Source: Pagrus major (lineage: Eukaryota > Chordata > Actinopteri > Spariformes > Sparidae). From it: 64,000 nucleotides of DNA. The stretch spans positions 13,872,147 through 13,936,146 of the forward strand of contig NC_133238.1 of assembly GCF_040436345.1 (NCBI RefSeq), given 5' to 3'. Below are positions 17,986 through 63,418 of the stretch, piece by piece (within the stretch, counting starts at the first letter, position 1; each line of letters begins with the position of its first letter). The notes below the pieces were generated by a model, which saw only the letters and a program-made list of their open reading frames with translations, did no database searches and was not told where the DNA came from. The translations under genes were made by a program, and so were the position numbers.

Positions 17986-18249
17986 GCTCCTCTGAAGTTC
18001 TGGTTCTTATCAGTGTCAGCTGAACGCAGCCGGACAGCAGAGGAAGCTGCCACCAGTCCACTAGATGGCGTCATGGAGCTGCAGTGACAGGACCTCTGTT
18101 ATATGACTGTGTCACTGTGTCACTGATCTGGAGTCAGCTGAAGTGTTTCTTTAATGTTCAACACTCACATTTCATTTATTTCACTTTTCATCAGCAATTT
18201 AAATGTCCAGAAAATGAAAGTAATTGAAACTGTTGCCAAAGTTTCTATG

Positions 18250-21342: not shown

Positions 21343-22293
21343 GTAATTTAACGGTCATTTCTAATGTTTCACACTTTAATGACGCGGTGAAATCAGAGTA
21401 GAAGTGGAGTTAGTTGGTCAGTATCTGAGCACAGAGTGGTTGTCACTGTGTAGCTCCACTTACTGATGACTGAAGGCAGCTTTTCCTGCCTGAATCAGCC
21501 TGTGGAGGAGGCCGAGACGAGCCGCCGCTCTCCCGCTGTCTGACGCACTAAACGCGGCTGGAGAGCAGCTGTTCGCCTGGATGCGGGAGCTGGAGGTGCT
21601 GAGGGGGCTGCAGCACCCCCTAAAACGAGGCTGTAACATGGGCCGAACTTACGAGAAGGCCCGAATCATTCAGAATTTGTCATCGACAGCGTTTCACACA
21701 GTTTATAAAGGTCCTCTTAACTCAACAACTCACAAAATGGAGCGATTTTTCAAGGGAGTCTGGGGACTTCCTGTCCCTCCTCCTCTCCCTGCTGCTGCTG
21801 ACTGCAGCTGATGTGACTTATAATATGTTGGTGTTCAGGTTCTTGTTCATAATGATCAGATACGTGTTGTCCTGGAGATTCAGATGAGTCCAAACACATG
21901 AGTGTGGCCCACCATTTACTATGACGTCATCATACAGACTGAGCCCTCAGCAGCAGCTGCATGAAGTGGAAACACGTGACTGAAGTACCTCAGGATTGTA
22001 GTTACGTGTAGTACTCGAGTAAATGTACTTTCCTCCACTGTTACTGGTGTTTCTAGAACAGTGAGTCCAGTCGTGTCTCGCTGGTTAAACTGGTGTTCAG
22101 AGCAGACGACTCACTTCCAGTCTGATGGCTCCATGACACCATCTAGTGGACTGACAGTAGAAGTGCAGCGTTCATGTGACGCTGATATGAAGCAGCCAAT
22201 CAGTGGAGGAGCAGCTGATGTTCTGACAGGAGACATGATGGAAAGGCTGATTTCAGTTGATGTGCAGATGAATGATTTGTGTTTCCTCTCCAG

Positions 22294-22537
22294 ATGAAAG
22301 TGTGTGTGAGCTGAGCAGCATGAATCAGTGTGAGGACAGAGAGGAGGGAGGCCCTCCCTCTAAAACCCCTGGACCTGGACCTGGACCTGGACCTGAACCT
22401 GAACCTGGACCTGGACCTGGACCTGGACCTGGACCTGAACATGGACCTGGACCTGAGCCCAGCTGTGTGTCCTTCAGGAGTGACCAGTCAAAGGAGATTG
22501 TTACTAATTTTAAACAACAGCGTTCATCAGACAGACA
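22294..22537 (+). CDS. NLR gene 1, first coding exon with GP repeat
   Basis: Acceptor CTCTCCAG; ATG at 22320 (a short upstream ATG at 22294 hits TGA after six codons). Encodes [15 protein letters not shown], then about 13 GGACCT-type hexamers read as Gly-Pro with Glu-Pro interruptions, then [12 protein letters not shown] and [10 protein letters not shown]. Donor GTGAGT. Likely disordered. Confidence 0.85.
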
Positions 22538-37500: not shown

Positions 37501-40262
37501 ATGCAGCCTGAGCCATGCACTGAGAATAAAAAGGACATGTAATATATATTTGAACAGAACAGATATGCTCAAGTTTCTATTGTGCAGAAATAAAGACTTG
37601 ACTTCAGACGATCTCTTACTATGACATGAAATATTGTAAAAACTCCTCTTATGTCCTCCAGTGTCTCTGAGCGTACTTCAGCTAGTTACCCAGCAGGGGG
37701 CGACACTGATCCATCACAAACCTGAGAGCACAGGTGGAAGGTGTTTCTGTCTTAAACGCTGCTTTTTAAATTGAAAGCTGTGATGTAGCCGGGCCCTAAT
37801 CTTGTGTTTGCAGGAACAACAGGTTTACTAATGGATGAAGTTCATCAGCTCCAAAAGTTCATCCTGTCCAAACTTTTGTCAGTCAGCCTGTCCAACAAAC
37901 AAACACTGCTGCTCATTAAAACACTGAACAATCAGTGACTAAAGGGACGGACACTACGGATCAGTGTAGACAGGTTCTGGGTTTGAAAGGTTTACTAAGT
38001 TACCGTGCCGAGTCTCCTTCACCCGTAGTGGCTCCGACCTGCTTTCTCTTCAGCTGCTCAGTGATGTGGTGCTACCGGGCCATGTGAGAGCAGCTCTGCA
38101 CATCTTGTAGCTGTTTTCTTTGAACACTTTAATATAAAGTGCTGCCACTTTTGATGACTTGGCTCGTACACTTTTCTCTTCTGTAACGTTTGTAGTTCCC
38201 GTTGCCTCCGTGGCCTCCGCTATATTGCAAATGCTAACGGAGCCCATTCAGAAAGGAGACGGCGCGACTCCGAGTAGCTTCCTGTTTCATCACCTGAGCT
38301 ACGCGAGGCGCCATTGGCTGGCTTACTGCTCCCCACCGCAGGAGACCAGAACTGCTGCACTGAATGTGTTTTCCTGACGTATCTTCGGCTCGACCGTCTT
38401 TGACTATGAAGTGAAGCAGCTCGCTCCGTGCCACAGCGCCTGCATCGTAACGTCAACCAGCTAATCCACCGTGAAACTGGTCGGCAGCTGTTTTTATAAT
38501 GGATTTAATGGGTCAGTTGTCGCGGCCCTAAAAACTTCTAACATTGAATTCAAAGTCAACACTGCACTTCTGTGAGTCCTCAGCATCAAACCTGCCAAGT
38601 ATAAAGTAGACTGGATGAACGGTTCTGGAGACATGTGGACCACAGACGGACAGACAGAAAGACAGATTCCTGGCTTCATAGTCAGATGTTCCTCTGTCAC
38701 ATCTGGACACATCATGTTTACCACAGCAGATTTCACACTAAGAGACATGTTCTGTCATTTGTTGTGTTTTAATGGCATCAAACATGACATGAAGTTCTCC
38801 TCACAGTAACTATTACTGCTGTAACATCCATCAGATATCAATCCAGCACCAAACTATAGTAACATGAACATGAACACATGAAATGATGCTGTTTCTACCA
38901 CAAACAGCTTCAGTGACACTTGTGAGCTTCTGGAGGGAAACAGTCTGGGAGTCTCTGTCTCTTGGTTTTGTGGCAGAGGTCGGGAACCAACGTCCAACGT
39001 TTCCTGATGATTTATTACGTATAAACTGTGTTTGTTTCTTTGCACAGTGAAACAAAGCAGCAGAAACACAGCGAGAACAAAAAGCAGACTGTGCAGGTGA
39101 GATTCAGAAAAGCCCTGGAAGCTTCAAACAGGAATCTGACCTCAAAAGTTCTGACATCCAAATCCAAAAGTCCTGTAATATACAAACATAAGCACAAGCT
39201 GACATTGGATCAGACAGCAAGCGTCAGGTAGCCCACAGGAAACAGCAGCAACATCCAGTAACATAAAGATGAAGTCATAAATCCAAACAGAGGTTTGTGT
39301 GTGTCCTCACATGTTGTCGTCCTCTTTCACACACACCAACATCCTGTGGCTCACTCTCAGTGTGTGAGGAGAGTGGCAGAGGTGAAGAGGTTCAGGGAAA
39401 CAGGGAGAAGCAGCCTGATGGACATGTTGTGTTTCTGTGTATGAGTCATGTCATGTCCATGTTTGCATGCTGAAAGAGGATGTGCTGCTCTGACCCCCCT
39501 CCTCCTTTCAGGGTGGAGCCTGCTGGAGTCCGATGGTTGACACCAGGTCTGAGGAAGTGTGAGTGTGTTTTTACTTTGATTCAGCTTCACACTGTGACAT
39601 CACTCGGTCACATCTGTGATGTCATCATCACACTGATGATACATTAATAACTGCAGCTGTGTTGTGTCTTTTTCTCTCCATCAGATTCCTGTGAGCTCAC
39701 AGTCGACACAAACACAGTCAGCAGACTCATCAAACTGTCTGACAACAACAGGAAGATGACACGTGTGTTAGAGGAGGATCAGTCACATCCTGATCATCCA
39801 GAGAGGTTTCAGTACTGTCGTCAGCTGCTGTGTAGAACTGGTCTGACTGGTCGCTGTTACTGGGAGGTCAAGTGGAGAGAAAATGTTTCTATATCAGTGA
39901 GTTACAGAAGAATCAGCAGGAGAGGAGGCAGTAATGACTGTGTGTTTGGACTGAATGATCAGTCCTGGAGTCTGTGGTGCTTTGATGGTCGTTACTCTGT
40001 CTGGCACAATAACAGAGGAACAGTCATCTCCTCCTCCTCCTCCTCCTCCTCCTCCTCCTCCTCCTCCTCCTCCTCCTCCTCCTCCTCTGGTAGAGTAGCA
40101 GTGTATGTGGACTGTCCTGCTGGCACTCTGTCCTTCTACAGAGTCTCCTCTGACTCACTGATCCACCTCCACACCTTCAGCACCACATTCACTGAACCTC
40201 TTTATCCTGGATTTGGGTTCTTGTCCAGTTCTGGTTCCTCAGTGTGTCTGTGTGGTGTTTAG
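22320..40262 (+). CDS. NLR gene 1: FISNA-NACHT-LRR-B30.2 (NLRC3-like, NLR-C family)
   Basis: Exons 22320-22537, 22960-23094, 26415-26493, 26648-26876, 32181-33975, 34072-34245, 34897-35070, 39512-39558 and 39685-40262. These sum to 3429 nt, an uninterrupted frame of 1142 codons plus stop with matching phases at every junction. Order: GP-rich repeats, charged helical stretch, FISNA, NACHT ATPase, two LRR exons, linker, PRY-SPRY. Such genes form large, fast-evolving teleost families of presumed cytosolic innate sensors; the ligand is unknown. An IRF-type element precedes exon 1. Compared with gene 2 it lacks seven GP exons and one LRR exon, has a longer Ser run in B30.2 and carries an antisense LINE in intron 4. 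The start ATG (AGCATGAATC) opens [15 protein letters not shown], the usual start in this family. AATAAA at 40357 is the likely poly(A) signal. Confidence 0.88.
22960..23094 (+). CDS. NLR gene 1, second GP-repeat exon
   Basis: 135 nt, a multiple of three with symmetric phase. Reads [12 protein letters not shown]...[12 protein letters not shown]...[10 protein letters not shown]. It is the same cassette that is repeated eight times in NLR gene 2. Acceptor GTCCAACAG, donor GTAAGT. Confidence 0.85.
24587..25413 (-). pseudogene. L2/CR1-like LINE reverse transcriptase fragment (copy in gene 1)
   Basis: Descending: [20 protein letters not shown], a stop after RLHG, then [32 protein letters not shown] (DD of the catalytic box), [14 protein letters not shown], and after a shift [18 protein letters not shown] and [17 protein letters not shown]. 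Stop codon and frameshifts show it is dead. The same fragment at 54726-55552 shows it was present before the duplication. Confidence 0.85.
26415..26493 (+). CDS. NLR gene 1, linker exon
   Basis: 79 nt. Reads (Q)[20 protein letters not shown] then LDSIFM, a conserved stretch before the FISNA region in fish NLR-C proteins. Its phase joins the GP exons to the next exon, which confirms the chain. Confidence 0.85.
26648..26876 (+). CDS. NLR gene 1, charged helical exon
   Basis: 229 nt. Reads [20 protein letters not shown], then acidic [20 protein letters not shown] and [20 protein letters not shown]. Strongly helical and charged, typical of the segment just upstream of FISNA. Donor GTAAGA. Confidence 0.88.
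27218..30649 (-). CDS. LINE ORF2: endonuclease (C-terminal part) and reverse transcriptase
   Basis: 1143 codons uninterrupted. N-terminal part retains the end of an APE-like endonuclease ([39 protein letters not shown]) but lacks its first half. Reverse transcriptase blocks: [79 protein letters not shown], and the catalytic YADD ([11 protein letters not shown]). C-terminal Cys box: [20 protein letters not shown]. This is the L1 clade layout. The region 30650-30990 does not restore the missing endonuclease part, so retrotransposition competence is unlikely. Confidence 0.9.
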   Translation of the reverse strand: MGQPKLYDFSFFKNSQLGYSPSHCRGDLNLVINPKLDRSHPKVLIPSAMSKTFSSIMSQLGCIDAWRLLHPLSKEFSYFSKVHQAYSRIDYFFIDRALLPAVKSTEYSAIVISDHAPHTLDLALLPNIIKQWKFNTGLLAKNEFCEYISKKIDVFLENNKTESTSPSLLWETLKAVIRGDIISYSTHLARKNKQKQQELIDAILSIDREYSDSPSPELYAKRVKLQSDYDLLSTDKAEYLLRRTKGTYYEYGDKASRLLALQLKRQSASNFISQIYDSSHSLITIPAEINSTFASFYSNLYQSEPPVNKTTMDNFLDNIDIPTIDPCIKEELERPIQLEELTSCLKLMQNNKAPGPDGFPVDFYKRFSHQLAPLLLDMFQDSLKQGSLPPTLNQALISLIPKKDKNLDECSSWRPISLLNSDVKLLAKVLACRLDPCLLDIISLDQTGFVRGRQLSSNIRRLLNIVLSPNTSQTAEMVISLDAEKAFDWVEWDYLFSALGKFGFGSKFISWIQLLYSAPSACVSTNFHRSEYFPLSRGTRQGCPMSPLLFAIAIEPLSIALKSSSCFTGIFRAGLEHRVSLYADDLLLYVTDPVSCVDNILQTLTTFGSFSGYKLNISKSECFPVNIAAKQISSDALPFRLAHNSFRYLGINISHSLPLLHKNNFTKLVTEIKTDLARWDSLPLSLIGRINSIKMNILPRFLFLFQCLPIFLSKSFLQMLDKMISKFIWAGKNPRVRQTTLQRSKSAGGFALPNLLFYYWAANLQKIHAWCNSPSLDWCIMEDASCHPSSLTALVCSPLASRYPSYIKNPIVLSSLKIWKQFRQHFRLSTPIPLSPIRNNHLFPSSNTDIAFTLWRERGLVHFSDLYLEGFFAAFNDLRIKYNLPQAHLFRYFQVRNYARTNFTSFPQAPTGSLITEVLSLPLARSKISVLYDLISSSNTSSPEKAKDSWERELGFGLTDGWWEEALFRVNSTSSCARLSLIQFKVLHKIHFTKSRLSRLFPGTNDICDRCGLSPADHVHMFFSCPKLVNFWSCFFYLLNKALNITLKPCPLISIFGVPRAPTRLTKKNSDVVAFASLIARRRILLHWKSPSAPPTTSWLSDLMSFLSLEKVKHSLRGSAANFYKRWQPLITHVNTLTSLDPD
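30993..31892 (-). pseudogene. LINE ORF1 (coiled coil + L1-type RNA-binding domain), interrupted
   Basis: 31892-31479 gives a Ser/Thr-rich start and a long heptad-like coiled coil ([20 protein letters not shown]) ending KRQNLRV. 31421-30993 gives the nucleic-acid-binding part ([39 protein letters not shown]). Between them, NLRV is followed by an in-frame 15-nt insert containing TGA and TAA before [18 protein letters not shown] resumes. Without the insert the frame would be continuous. Confidence 0.85.
32181..33975 (+). CDS. NLR gene 1, FISNA-NACHT exon
   Basis: 1795 nt. [49 protein letters not shown]: Walker A GVAGIGKT at 32471-32494, Walker [13 protein letters not shown] around 32681-32710, sensor TTRPAAA, then HIPVFCWI and the winged-helix motif [15 protein letters not shown]. 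All ATPase motifs are intact. About 95% identical to the gene 2 exon by eye, with a six-residue net length difference near the winged-helix/HD2 boundary. Confidence 0.95.
34072..34245 (+). CDS. NLR gene 1, LRR exon 1
   Basis: 174 nt, the standard fish NLR LRR exon. Encodes [20 protein letters not shown] and [20 protein letters not shown], two ribonuclease-inhibitor-type repeats. Confidence 0.93.
34315..34332 (+). pseudogene. 18-bp remnant of a deleted LRR exon
   Basis: TGTCCTTGAAACTCTCAG followed by GTCAG equals the last 18 bases and donor of the middle LRR exon of gene 2 (60492-60509). The preceding sequence jumps directly from intron sequence ending CTATCAAAC, so about 1.1 kb including the exon is gone from gene 1. 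Confidence 0.85.
34897..35070 (+). CDS. NLR gene 1, LRR exon 2
   Basis: 174 nt. [40 protein letters not shown]. Acceptor TGTCTGCAG, donor GTATGA. Corresponds to the third LRR exon of gene 2. Confidence 0.93.
35071..39511 (+). other. NLR gene 1 intron before the B30.2 exons
   Basis: 4.4 kb against 1.4 kb in gene 2. The first kilobase is homologous to 61315-62160. The extra roughly 3 kb (about 36090-39330) shows no recognised element beyond (AGTTT)n at about 36672-36700. A cassette at 39046-39096 between CACAG and GTGAGA could be a small exon but is not needed for the frame. Confidence 0.6.
39512..39558 (+). CDS. NLR gene 1, 47-nt linker exon
   Basis: Encodes (R)[15 protein letters not shown], the standard link between LRRs and PRY-SPRY in fish NLR-C proteins. 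Acceptor CCTTTCAG, donor GTGAGT. Confidence 0.88.
39685..40262 (+). CDS. NLR gene 1, B30.2 (PRY-SPRY) exon with 20-Ser run
   Basis: [114 protein letters not shown]. Stop TAG at 40260-40262. Codons 40029-40088 are 19 TCC plus TCT (20 Ser) in the loop before GRVAVYVD; gene 2 has six there. B30.2 loops are usually the recognition face, so this length change may matter. Confidence 0.93.
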
Positions 40263-48738: not shown

Positions 48739-48940
48739 ATGAAAGTGTGTGTGAGCTGAGCAGCATGAATCAGTGTGAGGACAGAGAGGAGGGAGGCCCT
48801 CCCTCTAAAACCACTGGACCTGGACCTGGACCTGGACCTGGAGCTGGACCTGAACCTGAGCCCAGCTGTGTGTCCTTCAGGAGTGACCGGTCAATGGATG
48901 AGATCATTAATTTTAAACAACAGCGTTCATCAGACAGACA
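48739..48940 (+). CDS. NLR gene 2, first coding exon (GP array exon 1)
   Basis: Acceptor CTCTCCAG; ATG at 48765. [19 protein letters not shown] repeats, [28 protein letters not shown]. Donor GTGAGT. Confidence 0.85.
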
Positions 48941-51900
48941 GTGAGTTGTCCTCATGTTGCTCTCTGTTGATGTTTGTCCTCATTAAATCCAGTCTGACCA
49001 GTTGTCCTGATGGTCTTCATGTCCTCAGAGTGATGATGGAGGACAAACTTCAGTCCTTGTTCTGTGTAAAAATACTTTATAAAGTTCAGCTGAGGATAAT
49101 ATGAAGCTTCAGAAGTCTGAGCTACACAGAACAAGTGGAGATCCTCCAAAGACTTGTTAGTCTGATGTACCGACAGTGAAGTTTGTTGTCTGTCAGAATG
49201 AATTCAGGATCCACAGACTGAAATCATTCAGCTTCATGTTTACTGAACTCTGGTGTGTTGATCCTTTTCTTGTTGATCGCTGCTAGTTTCTCCAGCAGCT
49301 TCTGTGTCTGAAGAATAAAAAGTCAATTAACATCTCTGGTGGTCTTTTTCTCTGTCCAACAGGAGACCAGCCTCTACTGGACCTGGACCTGGACCTGAGC
49401 CCAGCTGTATGTCCCTCAGGAGTGACCGGTCAATAGGTCGTTTCATTGATTTTAAAGGACAACAACCTCCTGCTGTAAAGAGGTGAGCTGTTAATAACAT
49501 TAATATGTGACTGATTCGTGCTTTAACTGTGGAGAAAGATGTTTTTTGAAACCTGATGTTTATTTTCAGCTTCGTTCTTCTTCACTTAAATTCATATTGT
49601 CACTTTAGAAAGCGGCCCAACAGAACCAGTCTTCAACTCTTCATTTCACTTCATTGAATTAGTTTGGTCCAATATTCTCTGAGGTTTATTCCTCATGTTT
49701 TCCACTATTTTATGGACACAAGCTTCTGTGTCTGAAGACTAGAAAGTCAATTAACATGTCTGGTGGTCGTCTTCTCTGTCCAACAGGAGACCAGCCTCTA
49801 CTGGACCTGGACCTGGACCTGGACCTGGTCCTGGACCTGGACCTGGACCTGGACCTGAGCCCAGTTGTGTGTCCTTCAAGAGTGACTGGTCAATAGGTCA
49901 CCTCATTAATTTTTTTGAACGACCACAACCTCCTGCTGTAAAGAGGTGAGCTGTTAATAACATGAAAATATGACTGATTCATGTTTTATGTTGTTTATTC
50001 AGAGAAATTTGTTTAAACTTGTGTTTTTCAGCATCGTTCTTCTTTACGTACATTTATATTGTCACATGTGAAGCTGCCCAGTAGAACCAGTCGTCATCTC
50101 TTGAGACTAGAAAGTCAATTAACATCTCTGGTGGTCTTTTTCTCGGTCCAACAGGAGACCAGCCTCTACTGGACCTGGACCTGGACCTGAACCTGGACCT
50201 GAGCCCAGCTGTGTGTCCTTCAGGAGTGACCGGTCAATGGATGAGATCATTAATTTTAAACAACAGCGTTCATCAGACAGACAGTGAGTTGTCCTCATGT
50301 TGCTCTCTGTTGATGTTTGTCCTCATTAAATCCAGTCTGACCAGTTGTCCTGATGGTCTTCATGTCCTCAGAGTGATGATGGAGGACAAACTTCAGTCCT
50401 TGTTCTGTGTAAAAATACTTTATAAAGTTCAGCTGAGGATAATATGAAGCTTCAGAAGTCTGAGCTCCACAGAACAAGTGGAGATCCTCCAAAGACTTGT
50501 TAGTCTGATGTATCGACAGTAAAGTTTGTTGTCAGAATGAATTCAGGATCCACAGACTGAAATCATTCAGCTTCATGTTTACTGAACTCTGGTGTGTTGA
50601 TCCTTTTCTTGTTGATCGCTGCTAGTTTCTCCAGCAGCTTCTGTGTCTGAAGAATAAAAAGTCAATTAACATCTCTGGTGGTCTTTTTCTCTGTCCAACA
50701 GGAGACCAGCCTCTACTGGACCTGGACCTGGACCTGGAGCTGGGCCTGGGCCTGGACCTGAACATGGACTTGAACATGGACCTGAACGTGGACCCCGACC
50801 TGAGCCCAGCTGTGTGTCCTTCAGGAGTGACCGGTCAATGGATGAGATCATTAATTTTAAACAACAGCGTTCATCAGACAGACAGTAAGTTGTCCTCATG
50901 TTGCTCTCTGCTGATGTTTGTCCTCATTAAATCCAGTCTGACCAGTTGTCCTGATGGTCTTCATGTCCTCAGAGTGATGATGGAGGACAAACTTCACAGT
51001 CCTTGTTCTGTGTAAAAATACTTTATAAAGTGCAGTTGAGGATAATATGAAGCTTCAGAAGTCTGAGCTACACAGAACAAGTGGAGATCCTCCAAAGACT
51101 TGTTAGTCTGATGTACCGACAGTGAAGTTTGTTGTCTGTCAGAATGAATTCAGGATCCACAGACTGAAATCATTCAGCTTCATGTTTACTGAACTCTGGT
51201 GTTTTGATCCTTTTCTTGTTGATCGCTGCTTGTTTCTCCAGCAGCTTCTGTGTCTGAAGAATAAAAAGTCAATTAACATCTCTGGTGGTCTTCTTCTCTG
51301 TCCAACAGGAGACCAGCCTCTACTGGACCTGGACCTGAACATGGACCTGGACCTGAGCCCAGCTGTGTGTCCTTCAGGAGTGACCGGTCAATGGATGAGA
51401 TCATTAATTTTAAACAACAACATTCATCAGACAGACAGTGAGTTGTCCTCATGTTGCTCTCTGTTGATGTTTGTCCTCATTAAATCCAGTCTGACCAGTT
51501 GTCCTGATGGTCTTCATGTCCTCAGAGTGATGATGGAGGACAAACTTCAGTCCTTGTTCTGTGTAAAAATACTTTATAAAGTTCAGCTGAGGATAATATG
51601 AAGCTTCAGAAGTCTGAGCTACACAGAACAAGTGGAGATCCTCCAAAGACTTGTTAGTCTGATGTACCGACAGTGAAGTTTGTTGTCTGTCAGAATGAAT
51701 TCAGGATCCACAGACTGAAATCATTCAGCTTCATGTTTACTGAACTCTGGTGTGTTGATCCTTTTCTTGTTGATAGCTGCTAGTTTCTCCAGCAGCTTCT
51801 GTGTCTGAAGAATAAAAAGTCAATTAACATCTCTGGTGGTCTTTTTCTCTGTCCAACAGGAGACCAGCCTCTACTGGACCTGGACCTGGACCTGGAGCTG

Positions 51901-54900
51901 GGCCTGGGCCTGGACCTGAACATGGACTTGAACATGGACCTGAACGTGGACCCCGACCTGAGCCCAGCTGTGTGTCCTTCAGGAGTGACCGGTCAATGGA
52001 TGAGATCATTAATTTTAAACAACAGCGTTCATCAGACAGACAGTGAGTTGTCCTCATGTTGCTCTCTGTTGATGTTTGTCCTCATTAAATCCAGTCTGAC
52101 CAGTTGTCCTGATGGTCTTCATGTCCTCAGAGTGATGATGGAGGACAAACTTCAGTCCTTGTTCTGTGTAAAAATACTTTATAAAGTTCAGCTGAGGATA
52201 ATATGAAGCTTCAGAAGTCTGAGCTACACAGAACAAGTGGAGATCCTCCAAAGACTTGTTAGTCTGATGTACCGACAGTAAAGTTTGTTGTCTGTCAGAA
52301 TGAATTCAGGATCCACAGACTGAAATCATTCAGCTTCATGTTTACTGAACTCTGGTGTGTTGATCCTTTTCTTGTTGATAGCTGCTAGTTTCTCCAGCAG
52401 CTTCTGTGTCTGAAGAATAAAAAGTCAATTAACATCTCTGGTGGTCTTTTTCTCTGTCCAACAGGAGACCAGCCTCTACTGGACCTGGACCTGGACCTGG
52501 AGCTGGGCCTGGGCCTGGACCTGAACATGGACTTGAACATGGACCTGAACGTGGACCCCGACCTGAGCCCAGCTGTGTGTCCTTCAGGAGTGACCGGTCA
52601 ATGGATGAGATCATTAATTTTAAACAACAGCGTTCATCAGACAGACAGTGAGTTGTCCTCATGTTGCTCTCTGTTGATGTTTGTCCTCATTAAATCCAGT
52701 CTGACCAGTTGTCCTGATGGTCTTCATGTCCTCAGAGTGATGATGGAGGACAAACTTCAGTCCTTGTTCTGTGTAAAAATACTTTATAAAGTGCAGTTGA
52801 GGATAATATGAAGCTTCAGAAGTCTGAGCTACACAGAACAAGTGGAGATCCTCCAAAGACTTGTTAGTCTGATGTACCGACAGTAAAGTTTGTTGTCTGT
52901 CAGAATGAATTCAGGATCCACAGACTGAAATCATTCAGCTTCATGTTTACTGAACTCTGGTGTTTTGATCCTTTTCTTGTTGATCGCTGCTAGTTTCTCC
53001 AGCAGCTTCTGTGTCTGAAGAATAAAAAGTCAATTAACATCTCTGGTGGTCTTCTTCTCTGTCCAACAGGAGACCAGCCTGTACTGGACCTGGACCTGGA
53101 GCTGGACCTGGACCTGGACCTGGACCTGGACCTGAGCCCAGCTGTGTGTCCTTCAGGAGTGACCAGTCAAAGGAGATTGTTACTAATTTTAAACAACAGC
53201 GTTCATCAGACAGACAGTAAGTTGTCCTCATGTTGCTCTCTGTTGATGTTTGTCCTCATTAAATCCAGTCTGACCAGTTGTCCTGATGGTCTTCATGTCC
53301 TCAGAGTGATGATGGAGGTCAGAGCAGGATCAGTATTAAAGGACAGGTTCACAGTTTTTCATGTCTGTCCCTCAACAACTCTGACGACAGTGTTCCTCCT
53401 GTGTACAAACAGCAGTGACTCACCTCCTGCTGAGATCTGACCCCTGCTGCTGAGGAGAGGAGAGGCTGTGTGTTATATCTAACGTTACAAGGGCCCGACC
53501 CATCCGGGCTTCATGGGGCCGGTACCGGAACCCATATTAAGGAGTAGAAAACTCTGATAACTGATATCATTGATATCAACTGATCAGCCGATTAAACTTT
53601 TTAATTATTCAAAAAAATATATAAAAACAAATAACTTCCTTTTTGACCTGTTAAATATAGTTCAACACTTGAGACAAAGATATGAACTGAAGGCAGAACA
53701 TTTTACTGTTTTACAATATTTATTAAATATGCAAAGGTCAACTTCTGCCCAATAATGATTATTATCAGATCGGCTATAATCACCTGATTAATCTGTCGGA
53801 CCTCCAATTTTTACTTCATATAGTGTTTTTTTGTGAAACATGCAGTTAAAACACTTCAAATAGTTTTATTATGAAGCTTCATTTCAAAATATCAAGACAC
53901 AAAACTGTTATTACAGTGCTTCTTTTTTATGTAAACAACATATCAAAAAGGACATGAACAACAAATACAAATATAAATAAATAAAAGTAAAAACAGAGAC
54001 CCACATCCCGACTTACAACAACCCACCCGGGACTGCAAGATGTTGCAGGTTTTTCTTTTAGTTTGTCCTGAATGAAGAACCGGATCATCTCAAGGTGGAG
54101 TGTGTCCATCAGCTCTGTGAGCCACAACTTCAGTGTAAAAACAATTTGTAGTTGTTATTCTCACTTTGATTCAGCTAATCTGAGCTCAGTCTCAGTCTTT
54201 GACAGTTTGTGTTAGCAGCCGACTCCTCCTGTCATTTTTTAAAGTGTCCTCAACTGTTAAATCAGCCGCTGTAGTTGATGTGAAGTTCACAGACTTTCCA
54301 TTCAAACACCAGTTTGCAGCGAGCGTCCATGTTTTTCTGAGCAGATCCACTGGGACACTTTTAGATTGGATGTCGGGAATACCTTGCAAAGGAACGCACC
54401 ATGAAGCCAGTGTTTCCCCCTCACTGTTCGTCGGTGCGTCTGTTTTGCTCCTGTGTTTCCTGTGTGTCTCACCTGTTCTCCGGTGCTGTGTTCTCCTTCT
54501 GTCTCCCTGGTTTGTTTATTTTAGGACTTATGGATTTCTGTTTTGTTTTGACTGCTTTGCCTTTTGGATTTTTCTCTGCCTGCCTTTTTTTGCTTGCCTT
54601 TTTGATTTTTGGGATTTTACTTCAAGTATTAAAGAAAAAAATATTAATATGACAGGAAACAGGATGAGAGAGGGGGAAGACATGCAGCAAAAGGCCACAG
54701 GTCAGACTCAAACTCCTGAACCACTTCAGCTTGGCATAGAAAGGAGAGAGGGATTTTCCACAATAGCTTTCAGCTTTCCTCTCATTCTCTTCTCTGTCAC
54801 GGCCTCCAGACTGTCCAGGTCCATCCCCACCACAGAGCTGGCCTTCCTGACCAGCATATTCAGTCTGATCGTACCACAGCTGCTGATGCCACCTCCCCAG

Positions 54901-57900
54901 CTCACCACAACAAAGATGACACTGGACGACAGACTGGTTGAACATCCATAGCAGCCTAGTGCTACACTGAAGGACCTGAGTGTCCTCAGAAAGAACAGGC
55001 TGCTCTTTCCTTTCCTGTCGAAGGCTTCAGTGTTGTCCGACCAGTCCAGCTTGTTATTCAGTTGCACCCTTATGAACTCTTGTAGGTGTCAACCATCTCC
55101 ACCTCCTCCCCATTTATTGTAACAGGGATGTGGGGGCTCCTTCAACATCAGAAGTCCACCAGCAGCTCCTTGGTTTTCCAAATGTTGAGGTGTATGTGGT
55201 TCCTCTCACACCATCCTACAAAGTCCTTGACTCGGTCTCTGTACTCCTTCTTATCACCTGTGATGCAGCCAACAATGGAGGAGTCATCCGAGAACTTCTG
55301 CAGGTGGTATTTTCCTGAGTTGAAGCAAAAGTCAGAGGTGTAGAGGCTGAACAGAAACGCTGACAGTACAGTTCCCTGGGGTGTGCCGATGTTGCTCGTC
55401 ACCATGTCAGACAATTAGCCGTGAAGCCTGATATCCTGCAACCTGTCTGTAATCCGTGCCACGAGGTCCTGATCCATCTGCATCATCCAGAGCTTCAAGG
55501 CCTGCCGGTGTGGCTGGAGGGTGTTGAAGGCACTGGAGAAGTCAAAGAACATGATCCTCACTCCTTAACTTTGGCATACATTAGGTCCAAGGTCTTATCA
55601 CCTCTGGTGTTGCAGGTCACACCAGTGGTTCTGTGTCATCCACCCCTGCTGATGCCCAGGCAGACCTCCAGTGGTCTCTGTTGCACTCTCCAGCCCATCC
55701 TCCCGAGGGCTTCTGTCTGGTCACCTCCTGACCTGCTTTGCCTTTTGCCTCAGCTTCCTTGTTGCCCCCTGGGCCTGCTTTGCTCTCCAGACATGGTTTG
55801 CCCTTCGGCTCTGGTTGCTGGTCGCTCAATGCCCACCCTCTGTGCCTTTCACCCAAAAATCCCCAATTGGCAGTTTTTGTCTTTTCTAGTTTCTCCTCAC
55901 AGGGTGTTGGGGTATCTATTTGTTTTATCAAGTGAATGCAATATGCTTCCGTAGGTTCCAGTGTGGCCATTGTGTAAATAATCACCCAAAAGCAACACAG
56001 GAAAAAGTCAATGAATAACTTTCGGGTCACACAAATCAGACAGAATAAATATCAAAATCAAGTTTGGCCTTAGGCCCATTCTTTCTTCTTTTCATCTCCT
56101 GTTTTTGATCTGAGCATAAAATAAATATAAGTATTTGCTTTTTTGGTATCAGATTCATAAACAAACAACTAAATAATGAATCATTTTTTCATTCTCCAAT
56201 GTTGGAATCTCAACTGAATACAAGTTTATTGAGACTCTTCACCAATTTGCACTGGACAGTTAGCATCCAACTAGCTTGTGTTAGCTGTGTGTTCCTGTCC
56301 ACAGTATTTTAGGGGTCAAGAGCTGGAGGGACTAAACCAGACAAGCTGCTGAAGCAACCCAGTAAACTGACTGACTGTTGATTCACAGTGGGATCAGCAG
56401 TACCACCAACACTTTGATGTCAGGGGAAACCATCTGATTCAATGATGTCATCAACACTTTAACTCAAAGGACCTTCAGCTTGTGTTTGTCTCTGAGTGGA
56501 CAGACATAATGTGGCTGATTCTTCATGATTTCTCCACAGAGTCGACCAGGAGAGCTCAGAGGTTCCCAGAGGTCCGTCTGCCCAGCAGCATCAAACACAC
56601 CTGGACTCCATATTTATGGTCTGTACATGAACAACAACTACTTTTACATCCAGTCTGTTCACAATAATCTCCATGCTGCACTTTACAGACCAGTGGTGAA
56701 TCTGTCCAACATGGATCTGATGTTTGGCTCCATGATGTTAAATGTTCTCATTCACATAATATTCTGTTCCAGCTGCTGGAGGAGAACATTGTGACTTTTG
56801 TGAAGAACGAGCTGAAGAAGATCCAGAAGGTTCTGAGTTCAGATCGCTCAGAATACTTAGAAAGTCAGAGGGAGGATGAGGAGGTGTTGGATGGTGAGGA
56901 TGAAGAGCAGAGGAGGAGCAGCAGAGAGGCATTTGTGAAGATCACACTTCACTTCCTGAGGAGAATGAAGCAGGAGGAGCTGGCTGACTGTCTGCAGAGC
57001 AGTAAGAGGATTTCTCTAAAGATTTAACATGATGGATCAATGAGACATTAACTGAAGTCTGATGATGATGATGATGGAAAATCTGTTTATATATGCAATC
57101 TTTAGGAGAAGGAAATTGTCTTATTTTCTTTATAAGTAACTTGATGATCTTTTTTGTTGTGTGTTTATTCAGGAAGTCATTCTGGAGTTTGTCAGCGTAA
57201 ACTTAAATCTAACCTTCAGAAGAAGTTCCAGTGTGTGTTTGAGGGGATCGCTAAAGCAGGAAACCCAACCCTTCTGAATCAGATCTACACAGAGCTCTAC
57301 ATCACAGAGGGAGGGACTGCAGAGGTCAATGATGAACATGAGGTCAGACAGATTGAAGCAGCATCCAGGAAACCAGGCAGACCAGAAACAACAGTCAGAC
57401 AAGAAGACATCTTTAAACCCTCACCTGGAAGAGACGAACCAATCAGAACAGTGATGACAAAGGGAGTGGCTGGCATCGGGAAAACAGTCTTAACACAGAA
57501 GTTCACTCTGGACTGGGCTGAAGACAAAGCCAACCAGGACATACAGTTCACATTTCCATTCACTTTCAGAGAGCTGAATGTGCTGAAAGAGAAAAAGTTC
57601 AGCTTGGTGGAGCTTGTTCATTACTTCTTCACTGAAACCAAAGAAATCTTCAGCTTTGAAGAGTTCCAGGTTGTGTTCATCTTCGACGGTCTGGATGAGT
57701 GTCGACTTCCTCTGGACTTCCATAACACTAAAATCCTGACTGATGCCACAAAATCCACCTCAGTGGATGTGCTGCTGACAAACCTCATCAGGGGAAACCT
57801 GCTTCCATCTGCTCACCTCTGGATAACCACACGACCTGCAGCAGCCAATCAGATCCCTCCTGGGTGTGTTGACATGGTGACAGAGGTCAGAGGGTTCACT

Positions 57901-60629
57901 GACCCACAGAAGGAGGAGTACTTCAAGAAGAGATTCAGAGATGAGGAGCAGGCCAGCAGATTCATCTCCCACATCAAGACATCACGAAGCCTCCACATCA
58001 TGTGCCACATCCCAGTCTTCTGCTGGATCACTGCTACAGTTCTGGAGGATGTGTTGAAGACCAGAGAGGCAGGAGAGCTGCCCAAGACCCTGACTGAGAT
58101 GTACATCCACTTCCTGGTGGTTCAGGCCAAACGGAAGAAGGTCAAGTATGATGGAGGAGCTGAGACAGATCCACACTGGACTCCAGAGAGCAGGAAGACG
58201 ATTGAGTCTCTGGGAAAACTGGCTTTTGAGCAGCTGCAGAAAGGAAACCTTGTCTTCTATGAATCAGACCTGACAGAGTGTGGCATCGATATCACAGCAG
58301 CCTCAGTGTACTCAGGAGTGTTCACACAGATCTTTAGAGAGGAGAGAGGACTGTATCAGGACAAGGTGTTCTGCTTCATCCATCTGAGTGTTCAGGAGTT
58401 TCTGGCTGCTCTTCATGTCCATCTGATGTTGATGAACTCTGGTGTCAATCTGCTGGCAGAGGAACAAACAACAGACCATCAATCTGCAGAGACGTGTCTC
58501 TACCAGAGTGCTGTGGACAAGGCCTTACAGAGTCCAAATGGACACCTGGACTTGTTCCTCCGCTTCCTCCTGGGTCTTTCACTGCAGACCAATCAGACTC
58601 TCCTAAAAGGTCTGCAGACACAGACAGGAAGTAGCTCACAGACCAATCAGGAAACAGTCGGTTACATCAAGAAGAAGTTCGAAGGGACTCTGCCTGCAGA
58701 GAGAAGCATCAATCTGTTCCACTGTCTGAATGAACTGAACGACCGTTCTCTCGTGGAGGAGATCCAATGGTACCTGAGATCAGGACGTCTCTCCACAGAT
58801 GAACTGTCTCCTGCTCAGTGGTCAGCTCTGGTCTTCATCTTACTGTCATCAGAAAAAGATCTGGACGTGTTTGACCTGAAGAAATACTCTGCTTCAGAGG
58901 AGGCTCTTCTGAGGCTGCTGCCAGTGGTCAAAGCCTCCAACAAAGCTCTGTAAGTGTGAAGAAGCTTTTTCAGAATGCAGTAAATGTGCTGTTATTGACC
59001 CAAATAGAAATAATTTTCTTGTTCTGCTCATTATTCTTTATCCAGACTGAGTGGCTGTAACCTCTCAGAGAGAAGCTGTGAAGCTCTGTCCTCAGTTCTC
59101 AGCTCCCAGTCCTCTAGTCTGAGAGAGCTGGACCTGAGTAATAACGACCTGCAGGGTTCAGGAGTGAAGCAGCTGTCTGTTGGACTGGAGAGTCCACACT
59201 GCAATCTGGAAAGTTTGAGGTCAGATCATGTTACTGTTTGTTGTGAAATCATTTATATATTTCTATACACTCAGACATCCATACACTTTAAACAGCTTCT
59301 CTGATATGAGTTTTTGAATTGCAGATTTTTTTGCTATCAAACTATCAAACGTTTTCTTTCAATGTACCTTTCAATAATTCATCTCCTGCACAGCACGAAC
59401 AATGAGGAGGGAGAACCTCATTTATGTTTGATATCATATGACTTTGACAACTGGATGTCCATTTATTCTCGATTCAGTCATGATTTATTGCCACGTTGAC
59501 ACGTTGCTTAGAACTGAACAGCAATGGAGCAAGAGATTATATATACCAGTCATTACCAGAGAGGATTTTATTTGGGCTGCCAAATATATTTGCAGACCTT
59601 CGTTCATAGTCTTCAATTTAAGATTTCTATCTGCAGTACACCTTTGACCCACATGGGGGAGCTTGTTAGTATCCACTGCTTGATTTGTAAATCAGGAGAT
59701 CTCGAGCACAGAGACAGTCCTACTCTGATGGGTCCATCCTGTGGACTGCTACAATGGTGGGGAGAAATGGACTTTAGGCCCAATGTTTTATTTACAACCA
59801 CAAAAAGCAGCAGGCCAAGAAACCCTATGAAGTGACATGTTCCATCTGTCTGTCTATCAATCCATCTCTGCTCCATCTCAGTGAGATGGACAGCGTCACA
59901 CTTAGACACACATCCTGATTGAGTTCATCATTTCACTGATTCACAGCTAAAATACCCACTTGCTTGTAGGACTTACAGTGATCATGTGCCAAAATATTTA
60001 GACACTAAGAAGTATTGATCTCATTTATAATGTATTTGTCACATATATATGTTTTTGGTAGCACAAGCATTAAACACAGTTGTTATTTATTAAACTATAT
60101 CTTTGAATTGGCTGGTGTATTCAAGACAATATAAGGGGATGTGGAAATGACAGTAAAAATAGTTTGGAAAGTCAATTTTTGCGCAAATCTGCTTTTTTCA
60201 AGTTCATTGGGCCTATTGTGAATATGGTTGCATTTTTAAACAGTGGGTCCCTGGAAGAAAAGTTTGGGAAACACTGATACTGTCTCAATAAAATTCAACA
60301 TTTTAACATATTCTTATTTATTATTTCCTGTGCAGACTGGGTGTCTGTAACCTCTCAGAGAGAAGCTGTGAAGCTCTGTCCTCAGCTCTCAGCTCCCAGT
60401 CCTCTAGTCTGAGAGAGCTGGACCTGAGTAACAACAACCTGCAGGATTCAGGAGTGAAGCAGCTGTCAGTTGAACTGAAGAGTTCACATTGTGTCCTTGA
60501 AACTCTCAGGTCAGGATTTATTATTTTAATTAATTATTTCATGTAACTTTACAATTGGAGCAGGTCTAGACCATACTCAGCCAGACAGGGTCCGCTATTT
60601 GAAATAGAAAACATTTTGTCATTTTTCAA

Positions 60630-60721
<92 letters not shown>

Positions 60722-63418
60722 GAGAGGAAAAGTCAGAGGATCACCCAAACAAATTACATTTCATCCTGAGAGGAGCATGAATGCATTTTATATAAATGTG
60801 GGTCTGTCAGTCTACTCTGCACTTTGGTCCCATTCGATGGCCTGCCATGAGGTTTTTGACTTTCGTGCTCCCCTCAGGATGAACTGTAATTACTTTAGTG
60901 ATCCTCCATCATCAGGTCATCATTTTAATCTGTACAATATGTTGGTTCATGACCAAATATTTGCAAAACTAATGGCATTTCCATCAGCTTCAGTTATACT
61001 CTGTGTTTAGTGCTGATTAGTAAATTAGTGAAAACTAAGGTGATGAATATAATAAACGTTAAACCCTTAAACACAGATGTGCACTGAATCATCAGGACCC
61101 TCAGCTGATCTGTGGTGTGTGTTGTTTTGTGTGTCTGCAGGCTGTCAGGCTGTCTGATCACAGAGGAAGGCTGTACTTCTCTGGCCTCAGCTCTGGACTC
61201 CAACCCCTCCCATCTGAAAGAGCTGGACCTGAGCTACAATCATCCAGGAGACTCAGGAGTGAAGCTGCTGTCTGCTCGACTGGAGGATCCAGGCTGGAGA
61301 CTGGACACTCTCAGGTATGAAGAGATCAAGATCAGCGACCAGGAGAGTCTTGGCACAAACACTAAAGTTACACCTCTTTTTTCAGACTAGTTTAGTGCCT
61401 GTTCAAAATGTGCCTGTTTGATTTGTTGGCCTCTGGTTTTGCTGCTTGATGAACCGTCATCCAAACTCCTACACATTCCACACTGATTGCAGAGGGTTAT
61501 CAAAACATTAACAATAAATCTAATTTCCACCACGTCACTGCTGTGTTATGATATTTATAATAACAATAGACCCTCTGTGTCAGATGTCTGATCAGAAAAT
61601 ACTGAACCTCAAATTCAAAAGATTTTGTGACACACATTTTGTGAATTTAATCACTGAATGTCATAGAAACTCTTTCCCTGAACTGGAGAATCAGTGTTTC
61701 TGCCAAAGTGCTTGACTTTGAACTTAAAATGGTTCTGACATGGATCTTTATCAACACTGGAGTAACTGCATTCTAGATCATCACTGACAAGTGTATCTGT
61801 GCCTCAGTGTGAAACCATTTACAGACTGTAACAACTGCCTGTGGCATCAGTTTAAAGTGAACAGAAGATATAAAACAGTCCAATAACAATGTTAGATGAC
61901 ACGAGGTGGAACATTCCCGTCACATCACCATAACAGCAGCAGTGCATAGGTTAATTTAAGATGGGTCAGTGGTGCCGTCTTGGCTCCTGTCATGAGGAAA
62001 CTGCTGAGTTTGGGCTGTTTTGGGTAGTTCTCATTATAACAGCCTGCAGGGGCAGGAAAGCTTCAGTGTTTTGCACCGTCAGCAAAATCAAAAGACAAAA
62101 GAAAAGAAAACATTCAGCGATCAATCATCTGCTCCATTGATTAACATGATATGTGACCTGTGCAGAGCTGCAGCTCTCTACAGTAGCTGGTGGACCTCTG
62201 GTTTAATGCTGTTGTAATGTACTTCAGCCTGGCTCGTAGCTGCTGACTCAGCTTCACTTTCAGCTGTTCTGGAGTCGTGTTCAGGTTCTGCTGGTGGAAA
62301 TCCAATGTTTCCTGATTTTGCTGCTTCACAATAAAAGCTTTCAAATAACTACATCATGCAGGACCTTTATTGTGAAGGATTTATAGGAAGTGTTAAACGC
62401 AGGAAGATGGCGTGACAACGTTGCATGAATGGACTTTTAATTTCTCTTGTGTGGCAGCAAACAACACACATGGTTTCAGTTACTAACTGAGTCTATCCAC
62501 ACACTTTATGGCCGACTACAGTAAAAACAGCGTGCACTTAACTGTGACTGCAGCAACGTGCTCGGTTCAGGGAGAACAGGGAGAAGCAGCCTGATGGACA
62601 TATTGTGTTTCTGTGTATGAGTCATGTCATGTCCATGTTTGCATGCTGAAAGAGGATGTGCTGCTCTGACCCCCCTCCTCCTTTCAGGGTGGAGCCTGCT
62701 GCAATCCGATGGTTGACACCAGGTCTGAGGAAGTGTGAGTGTGTTTTTACTTTGATTCATGAAAACAAAGCAGCTTCATACTGTGACATCACTCAGTCAC
62801 ATCTGTGATGTCATCACCACACTGATGATACATTAATAACTGCAGCTGTGTTGTGTCTTTTTCTCTCCATCAGATTCCTGTGAGCTCACAGTCGACACAA
62901 ACACAGTCAGCAGAAACATCAAACTGTCTGACAACAACAGGAAGATGACACATGTGAGAGAGGATCAGTCACATCCTGATCATCCAGAGAGGTTTGAGTC
63001 CTCCTGGTCTCCTCAGCTGCTGTGTATAACTGGTCTGACTGGTCGCTGTTACTGGGAGGTCGAGTGGAGCGGAGATGTTTCTATATCAGTGAGTTACAGA
63101 GAAATCAACAGGAGAGGAGACATTAATGACTGTTTGTTGGGATGGAATGATCAGTCCTGGAGTCTGTGGTGCTCTGATGATGGTCGTTACTCTGTCTGGC
63201 ACGATAAGAGACAAACAGTCATCTCCTCCTCCTCCTCCTCCGGTAGAGTAGCAGTGTATGTGGACTGTCCTGCTGGCACTCTGTCCTTCTACAGAGTCTC
63301 CTCTGACTCACTGATCCACCTCCACACGTTCAACACCACATTCACTGAACCTCTTTCTCCTGGATTTGGGTTCTTCAGGTCCAGTCCTGGTTCCTCAGTG
63401 TGTCTGTGTGGTGTTTAG
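48765..63418 (+). CDS. NLR gene 2: FISNA-NACHT-LRR-B30.2 with a nine-exon GP array
   Basis: Exons 48765-48940, 49363-49482, 49787-49945, 50155-50283, 50702-50884, 51309-51437, 51860-52042, 52465-52647, 53070-53216, 56540-56618, 56773-57001, 57173-58949, 59046-59219, 60336-60509, 61141-61314, 62688-62734 and 62874-63418. The sum is 4608 nt, 1535 codons plus stop, with all phases matching, so the gene looks intact. Same architecture as gene 1 but with nine repeat exons, three LRR exons and a short Ser run. Presumed cytosolic innate immune sensor with NACHT ATPase and B30.2 recognition module; the ligand is unknown. AATAAA at 63513-63518. Confidence is high for domain exons, moderate for inclusion of every GP exon in one transcript. 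Confidence 0.88.
49363..49482 (+). CDS. NLR gene 2, GP array exon 2
   Basis: 120 nt, symmetric phase. [20 protein letters not shown], then [14 protein letters not shown]. With exon 3 it forms a separate subtype ending PPAVKR rather than RSSDRQ. Confidence 0.8.
49787..49945 (+). CDS. NLR gene 2, GP array exon 3
   Basis: 159 nt, symmetric phase. RPAST, ten GP dipeptides, [29 protein letters not shown]. Confidence 0.8.
50155..50283 (+). CDS. NLR gene 2, GP array exon 4
   Basis: 129 nt, symmetric phase. [43 protein letters not shown]. Confidence 0.82.
50702..50884 (+). CDS. NLR gene 2, GP array exon 5
   Basis: 183 nt. Carries a distinctive variant, [20 protein letters not shown] then GPRPEPSCV, shared with exons 7 and 8. 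Confidence 0.82.
51309..51437 (+). CDS. NLR gene 2, GP array exon 6
   Basis: 129 nt. [43 protein letters not shown]. Confidence 0.82.
51860..52042 (+). CDS. NLR gene 2, GP array exon 7
   Basis: 183 nt, virtually identical to exons 5 and 8, including the [15 protein letters not shown] variant run. Confidence 0.82.
52465..52647 (+). CDS. NLR gene 2, GP array exon 8
   Basis: 183 nt, starting exactly 605 bp after exon 7 and virtually identical to it, with near-identical introns. Confidence 0.82.
53070..53216 (+). CDS. NLR gene 2, GP array exon 9
   Basis: 147 nt. RPVLDLDL-type DNA read as [24 protein letters not shown] GP repeats, then the [12 protein letters not shown] variant, as in the two GP exons of gene 1. 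It is the orthologue of gene 1's second GP exon. Confidence 0.8.
54726..55552 (-). pseudogene. L2/CR1-like LINE reverse transcriptase fragment (copy in gene 2)
   Basis: Duplicate of 24587-25413 with the same stop and frameshifts ([50 protein letters not shown]). Confidence 0.85.
56540..56618 (+). CDS. NLR gene 2, linker exon
   Basis: 79 nt, (Q)[20 protein letters not shown] and LDSIFM, identical in protein to the gene 1 exon. Confidence 0.85.
56773..57001 (+). CDS. NLR gene 2, charged helical exon
   Basis: 229 nt. [51 protein letters not shown]. Differs from gene 1 at a handful of residues. Confidence 0.88.
57173..58949 (+). CDS. NLR gene 2, FISNA-NACHT exon
   Basis: 1777 nt. Walker A GVAGIGKT at 57463-57486, Walker [20 protein letters not shown] and [15 protein letters not shown] all intact. 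After [10 protein letters not shown] the HD2-side segment differs strongly from gene 1 ([20 protein letters not shown] versus [18 protein letters not shown]), a local divergence in an otherwise near-identical exon. Confidence 0.95.
59046..59219 (+). CDS. NLR gene 2, LRR exon 1
   Basis: 174 nt. [40 protein letters not shown]. Confidence 0.93.
59220..60335 (+). other. NLR gene 2 intron between LRR exons 1 and 2
   Basis: 1.1 kb, no recognised element. Most of it is missing from gene 1 together with the next exon. Confidence 0.6.
60336..60509 (+). CDS. NLR gene 2, LRR exon 2 (lost from gene 1)
   Basis: 174 nt. [51 protein letters not shown]. Acceptor CTGTGCAG, donor GTCAGG. Confidence 0.92.
60629..60718. 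repeat. (CATA)n/(TA)n microsatellite
   Basis: About seven CATA units followed by roughly 29 TA dinucleotides, in the intron between LRR exons 2 and 3. Gene 1 has only a short imperfect AT-rich counterpart near 34495-34520. Confidence 0.95.
61141..61314 (+). CDS. NLR gene 2, LRR exon 3
   Basis: 174 nt. [40 protein letters not shown]. Confidence 0.93.
62688..62734 (+). CDS. NLR gene 2, 47-nt linker exon
   Basis: (R)[15 protein letters not shown]; two residues differ from gene 1 (GV to AI). Confidence 0.88.
62874..63418 (+). CDS. NLR gene 2, B30.2 (PRY-SPRY) exon
   Basis: [80 protein letters not shown], six Ser, [20 protein letters not shown], stop at 63416-63418. Compared with gene 1, differences cluster in predicted loop segments ([47 protein letters not shown]). 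Confidence 0.93.

What the first reader, a model, noticed from the sequence alone, without database searches (positions are those of the whole stretch)
48739..53216. Tandem amplification of a GP-repeat exon cassette inside an intact NLR gene
Nine exons in gene 2 encode the same module, (G-P)n-EPSCVSxRSD...[10 protein letters not shown] or ...PPAVKR. Exons 2-9 each have a length divisible by three (120, 159, 129, 183, 129, 183, 183, 147 nt) and identical 2/1 phase, so any number can be gained or lost without breaking the frame. Exons 7 and 8 start exactly 605 bp apart with near-identical introns, pointing to recent unequal crossing-over. Within each exon a GGACCT hexamer run varies independently. 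The gene is thus variable at two nested levels, and the sister gene has only two such exons. Repeated short N-terminal exons are known in fish NLR-C genes. A nine-copy GP array as a length-tunable disordered arm ahead of FISNA-NACHT is, to my knowledge, not described functionally.
Basis: partly seen in the sequence, partly recalled or inferred. Interest (0 to 1): 0.85.

Follow-up and report, generated by a model that had tools for sequence, protein, structure and literature searches.

The report
Nine-copy N-terminal cassette in fish NLR
A sea-bream immune-receptor gene carries nine near-copies of a short exon that encodes a probably floppy, serine-rich arm; the exon type is already known from fish, and this is an unusually long and recently amplified example.

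Summary
Gene 2 (48765-63418) reads as a complete 17-exon NLR-C gene with GT-AG introns (1535 aa). Nine successive exons encode the (GP)n-EPSCVSxxSD...FK module; exons 2-9 have exactly the stated lengths and lie between phase-2 introns. The sister gene has two. Seven array introns are 97.6-99.8% identical; a 605-bp-shifted self-match has 3 mismatches in 936 bp, so amplification is recent.

The kind is known: this is the ~30-aa N-terminal peptide repeat of fish NLR-C genes (PMC4852459), one per exon, variable in number. Among the 120 relatives listed, one has 11 modules in a row. The Gly-Pro run elaborates the spacer.

Additions: the most constant feature of the module is a serine ladder SxxSxxSxxS (349 of 388 unique cores), spaced like casein-kinase-1 multi-serine sites; and the 5' blocks of the two genes differ by about 0.8% against 4.7% in their NACHT exons.

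Against: the deposited Pagrus major model of this locus is identical over all 1065 residues after the array but skips most of the array, in a way that looks mis-annotated. Transcript evidence is missing.

The parts
48765..48940 (+). Gene 2 exon 1: start [11 protein letters not shown] plus module 1 (a splice-acceptor AG lies at 48737-48738)
49363..49482 (+). Module exon 2 (120 nt, PPAVKR type)
49787..49945 (+). Module exon 3 (159 nt, PPAVKR type)
50155..50283 (+). Module exon 4 (129 nt, SSDRQ type)
50702..50884 (+). Module exon 5 (183 nt)
51309..51437 (+). Module exon 6 (129 nt)
51860..52042 (+). Module exon 7 (183 nt), identical to exons 5 and 8 in its 100-nt GP part and 83-nt core
52465..52647 (+). 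Module exon 8 (183 nt), 605 bp after exon 7
53070..53216 (+). Module exon 9 (147 nt, KEIVTNFK core, same core as both gene-1 modules)
51423..52963 (+). 605-bp-shifted self-match (51423-52358 against 52028-52963): 3 mismatches in 936 bp, the footprint of a very recent duplication
56540..56618 (+). Exon 10, linker [26 protein letters not shown]
56773..57001 (+). Exon 11, [16 protein letters not shown]..., predicted as long helices in relative P0001
57173..58949 (+). Exon 12, FISNA-NACHT-winged helix-HD2, Walker A GVAGIGKT
59046..61314 (+). Three 174-nt LRR exons (59046-59219, 60336-60509, 61141-61314)
62688..63418 (+). 47-nt exon (62688-62734) and PRY-SPRY/B30.2 exon (62874-63418)
22320..40262 (+). 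Sister gene 1, two modules (22320-22537, 22960-23094), complete reading frame, 1142 aa

Best explanation
This is a fish NLR-C (FISNA-NACHT-LRR-B30.2) gene of the percomorph 'group 5' type. Its known N-terminal peptide-repeat exon has been amplified to nine copies by recent unequal recombination between near-identical exon-intron units; because every cassette lies between phase-2 introns, copies can be added or lost without a frameshift. The product is inferred to be a long unstructured arm in which Gly-Pro spacers present nine copies of a constrained ~20-residue linear motif ahead of a helical segment and FISNA-NACHT. I think the arm most likely works as a multivalent docking or modification platform whose valence and reach scale with copy number, and that the core is phosphorylated on its serine ladder. 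Shown: anatomy, phase, copy number, recent duplication, motif constraint. Predicted: lack of structure. Inferred: translation of all nine copies, multivalency, phosphorylation. The confidence given is for the whole; the anatomy alone I hold at about 0.9, the function at about 0.3.
For: Open 1535-aa, 17-exon model with GT-AG introns; the deposited Pagrus major model agrees with it at all 1065 residues after the array. Pfam FISNA, NACHT, NOD2_WH, NLRC4_HD2, LRR, PRY, SPRY. Exon lengths and phase. Seven introns 97.6-99.8% identical and 3/936 mismatches at shift 605. The module in 187 of the 196 proteins retrieved by my two searches (they were retrieved by likeness to this gene, so this is not a census), including a cyprinid (P0046) and a salmonid (P0107). 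Module counts of 0-11 among the 120 listed relatives. No secondary structure in the modules of P0001 (mostly pLDDT under 50) or P0121 (pLDDT about 23-30). Constraint on the P, S, C, V, S, K, S, D, S, F and K positions. Described repeats: PMC4852459 passages.
Against: The deposited Pagrus major model P0091 maps to this locus residue for residue but uses only parts of exons 1, 5 and 7 (5 and 7 in a shifted frame), an 8-nt piece of intron 7, and exon 9. No transcript or protein data were available. The AlphaFold models are of relatives, from 33 and 45 sequences; in the second one much of FISNA-NACHT also falls below pLDDT 50, so low confidence there is not specific to the modules. The six Pagrus major models among the 120 have only 1-2 modules each. 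Copy number itself shows no sign of selection in these data.
Confidence: 0.6

Rival explanations
1. Neutral expansion: the array is a by-product of recombination between similar introns and of replication slippage in GGACCT. Symmetric phase makes extra copies harmless, and copy number has no effect on the receptor. (Shares the anatomy of the best explanation and denies its function.)
For: Copy number varies 0-11 in the 120 listed relatives and 2 versus 9 between the sister genes. GP length differs between exons with identical cores. The recent duplicate differs by 3/936 bp, so selection has had little time to act.
Against: Core positions are strongly constrained across distant fish, so the module itself is not free to drift; this does not exclude neutrality of the number.
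Confidence: 0.4
2. Alternative splicing device: most transcripts include only some cassettes, so the array gives a set of isoforms with different arm lengths.
For: Two Acanthopagrus schlegelii models given as isoforms 1 and 2 of AB9X84_004674 differ by one 35-aa module (P0129 with 8, P0132 with 7). The deposited model of this very locus skips most cassettes.
Against: Both are database models, not reads. P0091 contains an 8-nt exon and frame-shifted GP exons. All nine exons here have GT donors and, for exons 2-9, AG acceptors.
Confidence: 0.25
3. Membrane or redox arm: the conserved Cys of each module is lipidated or oxidised, giving nine anchors.
For: Cys in 93.6% of 388 unique cores.
Against: Seven successive modules of A. 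schlegelii P0125 read PSSVS, with Ser for Cys, while keeping the serine ladder.
Confidence: 0.07
4. Assembly artefact: the nine copies are an expansion created by assembly.
For: Not excluded; no reads were available.
Against: All units can be told apart by intron or exon differences; the longest exact repeat in the array is 512 bp and the array is only 4.5 kb. The deposited model uses residues of exons 1, 5, 7 and 9, though it is probably from the same assembly.
Confidence: 0.05

Closest known systems
N-terminal ~30-aa peptide repeats of zebrafish NLR-C groups 2, 3 and 4 (Howe et al. 2016, PMC4852459; passages read)
   Same: Repeats of a short peptide found only in this NLR family, each on its own exon, variable in number, 'extensively duplicated' in groups 2b and 3b, upstream of FISNA-NACHT.
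   Different: Here each repeat is preceded by a Gly-Pro run of variable length, nine lie in one gene, and most units are nearly identical at DNA level.
Goby and croaker 'group 5' NLR-C (round goby genome paper, PMC6988351; passages read)
   Same: Walker A GVAG(V/I)GKT and exon end (L/M)PV(V/I)KASxK(A/V); gene 2 has GVAGIGKT and [10 protein letters not shown]. Group 5 can carry B30.2.
   Different: [quoted passage not shown] no PYD was found here. The passages seen do not describe the N-terminal repeats.
Sander vitreus LOC144533487 (P0086), 11 modules; Acanthopagrus schlegelii AB9X84_004674 (P0129), 8 modules
   Same: Long contiguous module arrays in full-length NLR-C models.
   Different: P0086 has no GP/EP run longer than 2 pairs; P0129 has a GP run only before its first module.
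PER2 FASP multi-serine region, a casein kinase 1 substrate (PMC9205208, passages; PMC12709424, passages)
   Same: Serines spaced three apart, S-x-x-S-x-x-S-x-x-S.
   Different: Unrelated protein; no priming site, kinase docking or phosphorylation is shown for the fish module; the ladder has 4 serines per module, repeated nine times.

Membership tests
Fish NLR-C / NLR-B30.2 family | FISNA directly before NACHT | tested here: met
   PF14484 at 583-654 and PF05729 at 664-830 of the gene-2 protein
Fish NLR-C / NLR-B30.2 family | One large exon holding FISNA-NACHT-winged helix-superhelical domain | tested here: met
   Exon 12, 57173-58949, 1777 nt
Fish NLR-C / NLR-B30.2 family | LRR exons followed by a B30.2 exon (not in all groups) | tested here: met
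   Three 174-nt LRR exons and PRY-SPRY exon
NLR-C group 5 | Walker A GVAG(V/I)GKT and exon end (L/M)PV(V/I)KASxK(A/V) | tested here: met
   GVAGIGKT and [10 protein letters not shown] in gene 2; no tree was built
NLR-C N-terminal peptide repeat | About 30-aa repeat, one per exon, upstream of FISNA-NACHT in this NLR family | tested here: met
   Nine single-exon modules; relatives carry it before FISNA-NACHT. Exon structure of the relatives was not examined
NLR-C N-terminal peptide repeat | Sequence homology to the zebrafish repeat types themselves | tested here: inconclusive
   No zebrafish row was among the 196 listed; a cyprinid, Leuciscus P0046, has PSCVSLRSDRSMDYPIHFK
CK1 multi-serine substrate | Serines repeated at three-residue spacing | tested here: met
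   349 of 388 unique cores have all four serines; seed profile also has them
CK1 multi-serine substrate | Phosphorylation by CK1, with or without priming | not testable with these tools
   Needs kinase assay or phosphoproteomics

The most novel reading that the evidence does not exclude
The NLR-C N-terminal repeat is a phosphorylation cassette: each ~20-residue core carries a near-invariant SxxSxxSxxS ladder suited to CK1-type sequential phosphorylation, and germline changes in exon number tune how many ladders one receptor carries (36 ladder serines here, 8 in the sister gene). Fish would then adjust receptor threshold or turnover by gaining and losing whole exons.
Probability: 0.15. Interest if true: 0.7.

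Novelty: new member of a known kind. Interest (0 to 1): 0.36.

Why it matters
Many fish NLR-C genes carry these N-terminal repeats, and the passages read here give them no function. A nine-copy array beside a two-copy sister with nearly identical 5' flanks is a natural dose pair for testing what the repeats do. The near-invariant serine ladder gives a concrete, cheap hypothesis for a peptide for which I found no function.

Tried and rejected
Pfam lists no fish-NLR family for the module. Two Pfam hits fall in the array: Baculo_LEF5_C (28 bits, above its cut-off of 24, best stretch 10 residues) and C2H2-2nd_BIRD-IDD (22.9 bits, below its cut-off, 17 residues); both were set aside as compositional. 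A search of solved structures with a two-module peptide gave one chain at E 1.3. Collagen-like reading rejected: the arm is GP dipeptides, not G-X-Y (sequence shows directly). Cys-anchor reading kept only as a weak rival. Whether gene 2 gained copies or gene 1 lost them could not be settled: gene 1 lacks the PPAVKR modules seen in several sparid models, and both its modules have the exon-9 core, so both gain and loss are likely. A regex count found fewer modules in some proteins than the profile, for instance 8 against 11 in P0086; I use the profile. Fold searches were not run because the module models have no usable confidence.

Literature: text searches of the held library for five module strings, for NLR-C with teleost, N-terminal and disordered, and for NLR, teleost, exon duplication, N-terminal, tandem and NACHT returned 0 papers each. 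FISNA with phosphorylat and fish gave 34 papers, 12 listed, of which I read passages of two. NLRC3-like with sea bream and N-terminal gave one review, seen as listing. Searches were seen as listings apart from the papers named in this report. This does not cover figures, supplements or subscription journals.
Full report
Observation. The nine module exons exist where stated. One search located the repeated acceptors and donors and gave exon lengths 120, 159, 129, 183, 129, 183, 183 and 147 nt for exons 2-9, all divisible by three. The full gene-2 model has 17 exons, GT-AG introns and one continuous reading frame of 1535 aa; all introns in the array are phase 2. Pfam finds FISNA, NACHT, NOD2_WH, NLRC4_HD2, LRR, PRY and SPRY in it and no PYD. 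Sister gene 1 also reads through, 1142 aa, with two modules. Exons 7 and 8, and 8 and 9, start 605 bp apart.

Species. The deposited Pagrus major protein P0091 is identical to the gene-2 model over all 1065 residues after the array, and its first 175 residues map residue for residue to the window with five GT-AG introns (the script also allowed GC donors, none was used). The window is therefore Pagrus major or indistinguishable from it here.

How the array grew. Introns 1 and 4-8 of gene 2 and intron 1 of gene 1 are 97.6-99.8% identical; introns 2 and 3 are 84.5-86.8% identical to the rest over the aligned part, with many gaps. A self-match at shift 605 has 3 mismatches in 936 bp. Between the two genes, the 5' flank differs at 3 of 435 sites, intron 1 at 5 of 422, the intron after the array at 27 of 3306, exons 10-11 with their intron at 13 of 462, the last LRR exon at 2 of 174, the FISNA-NACHT exon at 84 of 1777 and the B30.2 exon at 34 of 533 with 57 gap columns. 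In windows of 200-300 bp the rise is uneven: 0-4 differences per 300 bp up to about 55.9 kb, 7 at 55.9 kb, 11 of 244 from 56.8 kb, but only 3 of 200 in two windows at 57.3-57.7 kb. So the 5' block is either homogenised or younger than most of the rest, and the difference of nine against two modules lies within it. The 605-bp duplication, 0.32%, is younger again. Unequal recombination explains this; gene conversion may contribute, since intron variants are shared in a mosaic way. Assembly error is unlikely because the longest exact repeat is 512 bp and all units can be told apart, but no reads were seen.

What the module is. Howe et al. (PMC4852459, passages) describe repeats of an approximately 30-aa peptide in groups 2-4 of zebrafish NLR-C genes, each on a single exon and extensively duplicated in some subgroups; PMC11192531 (passages) says that their number varies. 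A search with the first five modules returned 76 proteins (only the 7984 candidates sharing most words were scored) and one with gene 2 returned 6905, of which the best 120 are listed. I counted only these 120. With a profile of the core built from the same 196 proteins, the 120 have 0 modules in 7, 1 in 14, 2 in 35, 3 in 29, 4 in 11, 5 in 10, 6 in 5, 7 in 4, 8 in 3, 9 in 1 and 11 in 1 (no hits in the reversed 196). The nine in P0089 are split 6 and 3 around a second start-like stretch; the three 8-module rows share one A. schlegelii contig and the same array; P0086 of Sander vitreus has 11 in a row. Gene 2 is thus near the top of the range, not outside it. The six Pagrus major models among the 120 have 1 or 2. 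GP runs occur in many but are mostly shorter: the longest runs of listed dipeptides among the 196 proteins are 14 and 12 pairs, against 15 in exons 5, 7 and 8 here; the dipeptide set used for gene 2 was one pair wider, so the comparison is approximate.

Structure. AlphaFold with 33 sequences gave a four-module relative (P0001) no secondary structure in the repeat part, mostly pLDDT under 50, and two long helices for the part that exons 10-11 encode here (10-residue means 46-87). A full-length relative with two modules (P0121, 45 sequences) gave pLDDT about 23-30 over the modules and no secondary structure there. That second model is poor overall (mean pLDDT 54.5, pTM 0.37): most of the exon 10-11 part and much of FISNA-NACHT are also under 50, so it adds little. 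Together they favour, but do not prove, a disordered arm; neither is gene 2 itself.

Constraint. Seeding a profile only with the 11 window modules gave 527 matches, of which 3 gapped and 4 incomplete ones were dropped, leaving 520 in 187 of 196 proteins and 388 unique cores. Consensus: [E/G]-P-S-C-V-S-[F/M/L]-K-S-D-x-S-x4-[I/L]-x-F-K. The four serines are each 95.9-98.5% conserved among the unique cores; all four are present in 349 of 388. Over the 520 matches, 2026 of 2080 ladder cells are Ser; the 54 others include 7 Thr, 2 Ala and 3 Asp. In an alignment of 33 chosen proteins, many of them N-terminal fragments, the only invariant columns are these four serines; in a second alignment of 45 mostly full-length proteins only the fourth is invariant and the other three are 90% or more, while the NACHT part has many invariant columns. 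The seed itself has serine at these places, which favours such rows. As a control, SxxSxxSxxS occurs 286 times in 22959 residues before the exon-10 anchor and 114 times in 128280 after it, in 111 of the 120 proteins (9 had no anchor); the second figure includes further modules in models with a second anchor (20 of the 120) and may include polyserine runs. The spacing equals that of CK1 multi-serine substrates such as PER2 FASP (PMC9205208, passages including Table 1; PMC12709424, passages). NLRP3 is known to be regulated by phosphorylation, including by CK1-alpha at S806 (PMC10654991, passages), and a disordered part of NLRP3 FISNA drives its condensation (PMC12134225, passages). These are precedents, not evidence for the fish module.

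Evidence against a long arm. P0091 is the only deposited model of this locus that I saw. Its path is 48765-48882, 50702-50833, 51860-51945, 52095-52102, 53070-53216, then exon 10: it takes three genuine array acceptors but internal donors, reads exons 5 and 7 in the DL frame instead of GP, and includes an 8-nt exon inside intron 7. The path is the one with fewest introns that fits; the database's own coordinates were not seen. I judge it mis-annotated, but it may reflect partial reads, and only transcripts can settle it.

Verdict. The kind of feature is known; the specimen is extreme and recent. The serine ladder is the point I would follow.

Noticed in passing
window 40028-40087: Gene 1 has a perfect CTC x20 run inside its B30.2 exon, giving a long polyserine stretch; gene 2 has six serines at the same place.
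   Followed up: partly
window 47830-56800 versus 21386-26700: The 5' block of the two genes is about 0.8% divergent while FISNA-NACHT differs by 4.7%: a mosaic pair, as if the N-terminal block had been homogenised or exchanged.
   Followed up: partly
window 27218-31469, minus strand: Long ORFs (1164 and 158 aa) of reverse-transcriptase/LINE type lie in the gene-1 intron between exons 11 and 12, where gene 2 has only a short intron; a second such ORF lies at 42681-43721 plus strand (type recalled from motifs, not searched).
   Followed up: no
window 17730-17988, minus strand: Short B30.2-like matches with stops between them, a probable remnant.
   Followed up: partly
window 9478-10810: 37-bp minisatellite, 36 copies at 97% matches.
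   Followed up: no
window 51107-51601: The GGACCT runs are open in more than one frame; the DL frame stays open through exon 6 and parts of both neighbouring introns for 164 aa, which may explain the faulty deposited model P0091.
   Followed up: partly
proteins P0041, P0044, P0057, P0068: Modules joined to LRRs or to B30.2 without NACHT in some database models; real shuffled genes or faulty models.
   Followed up: no
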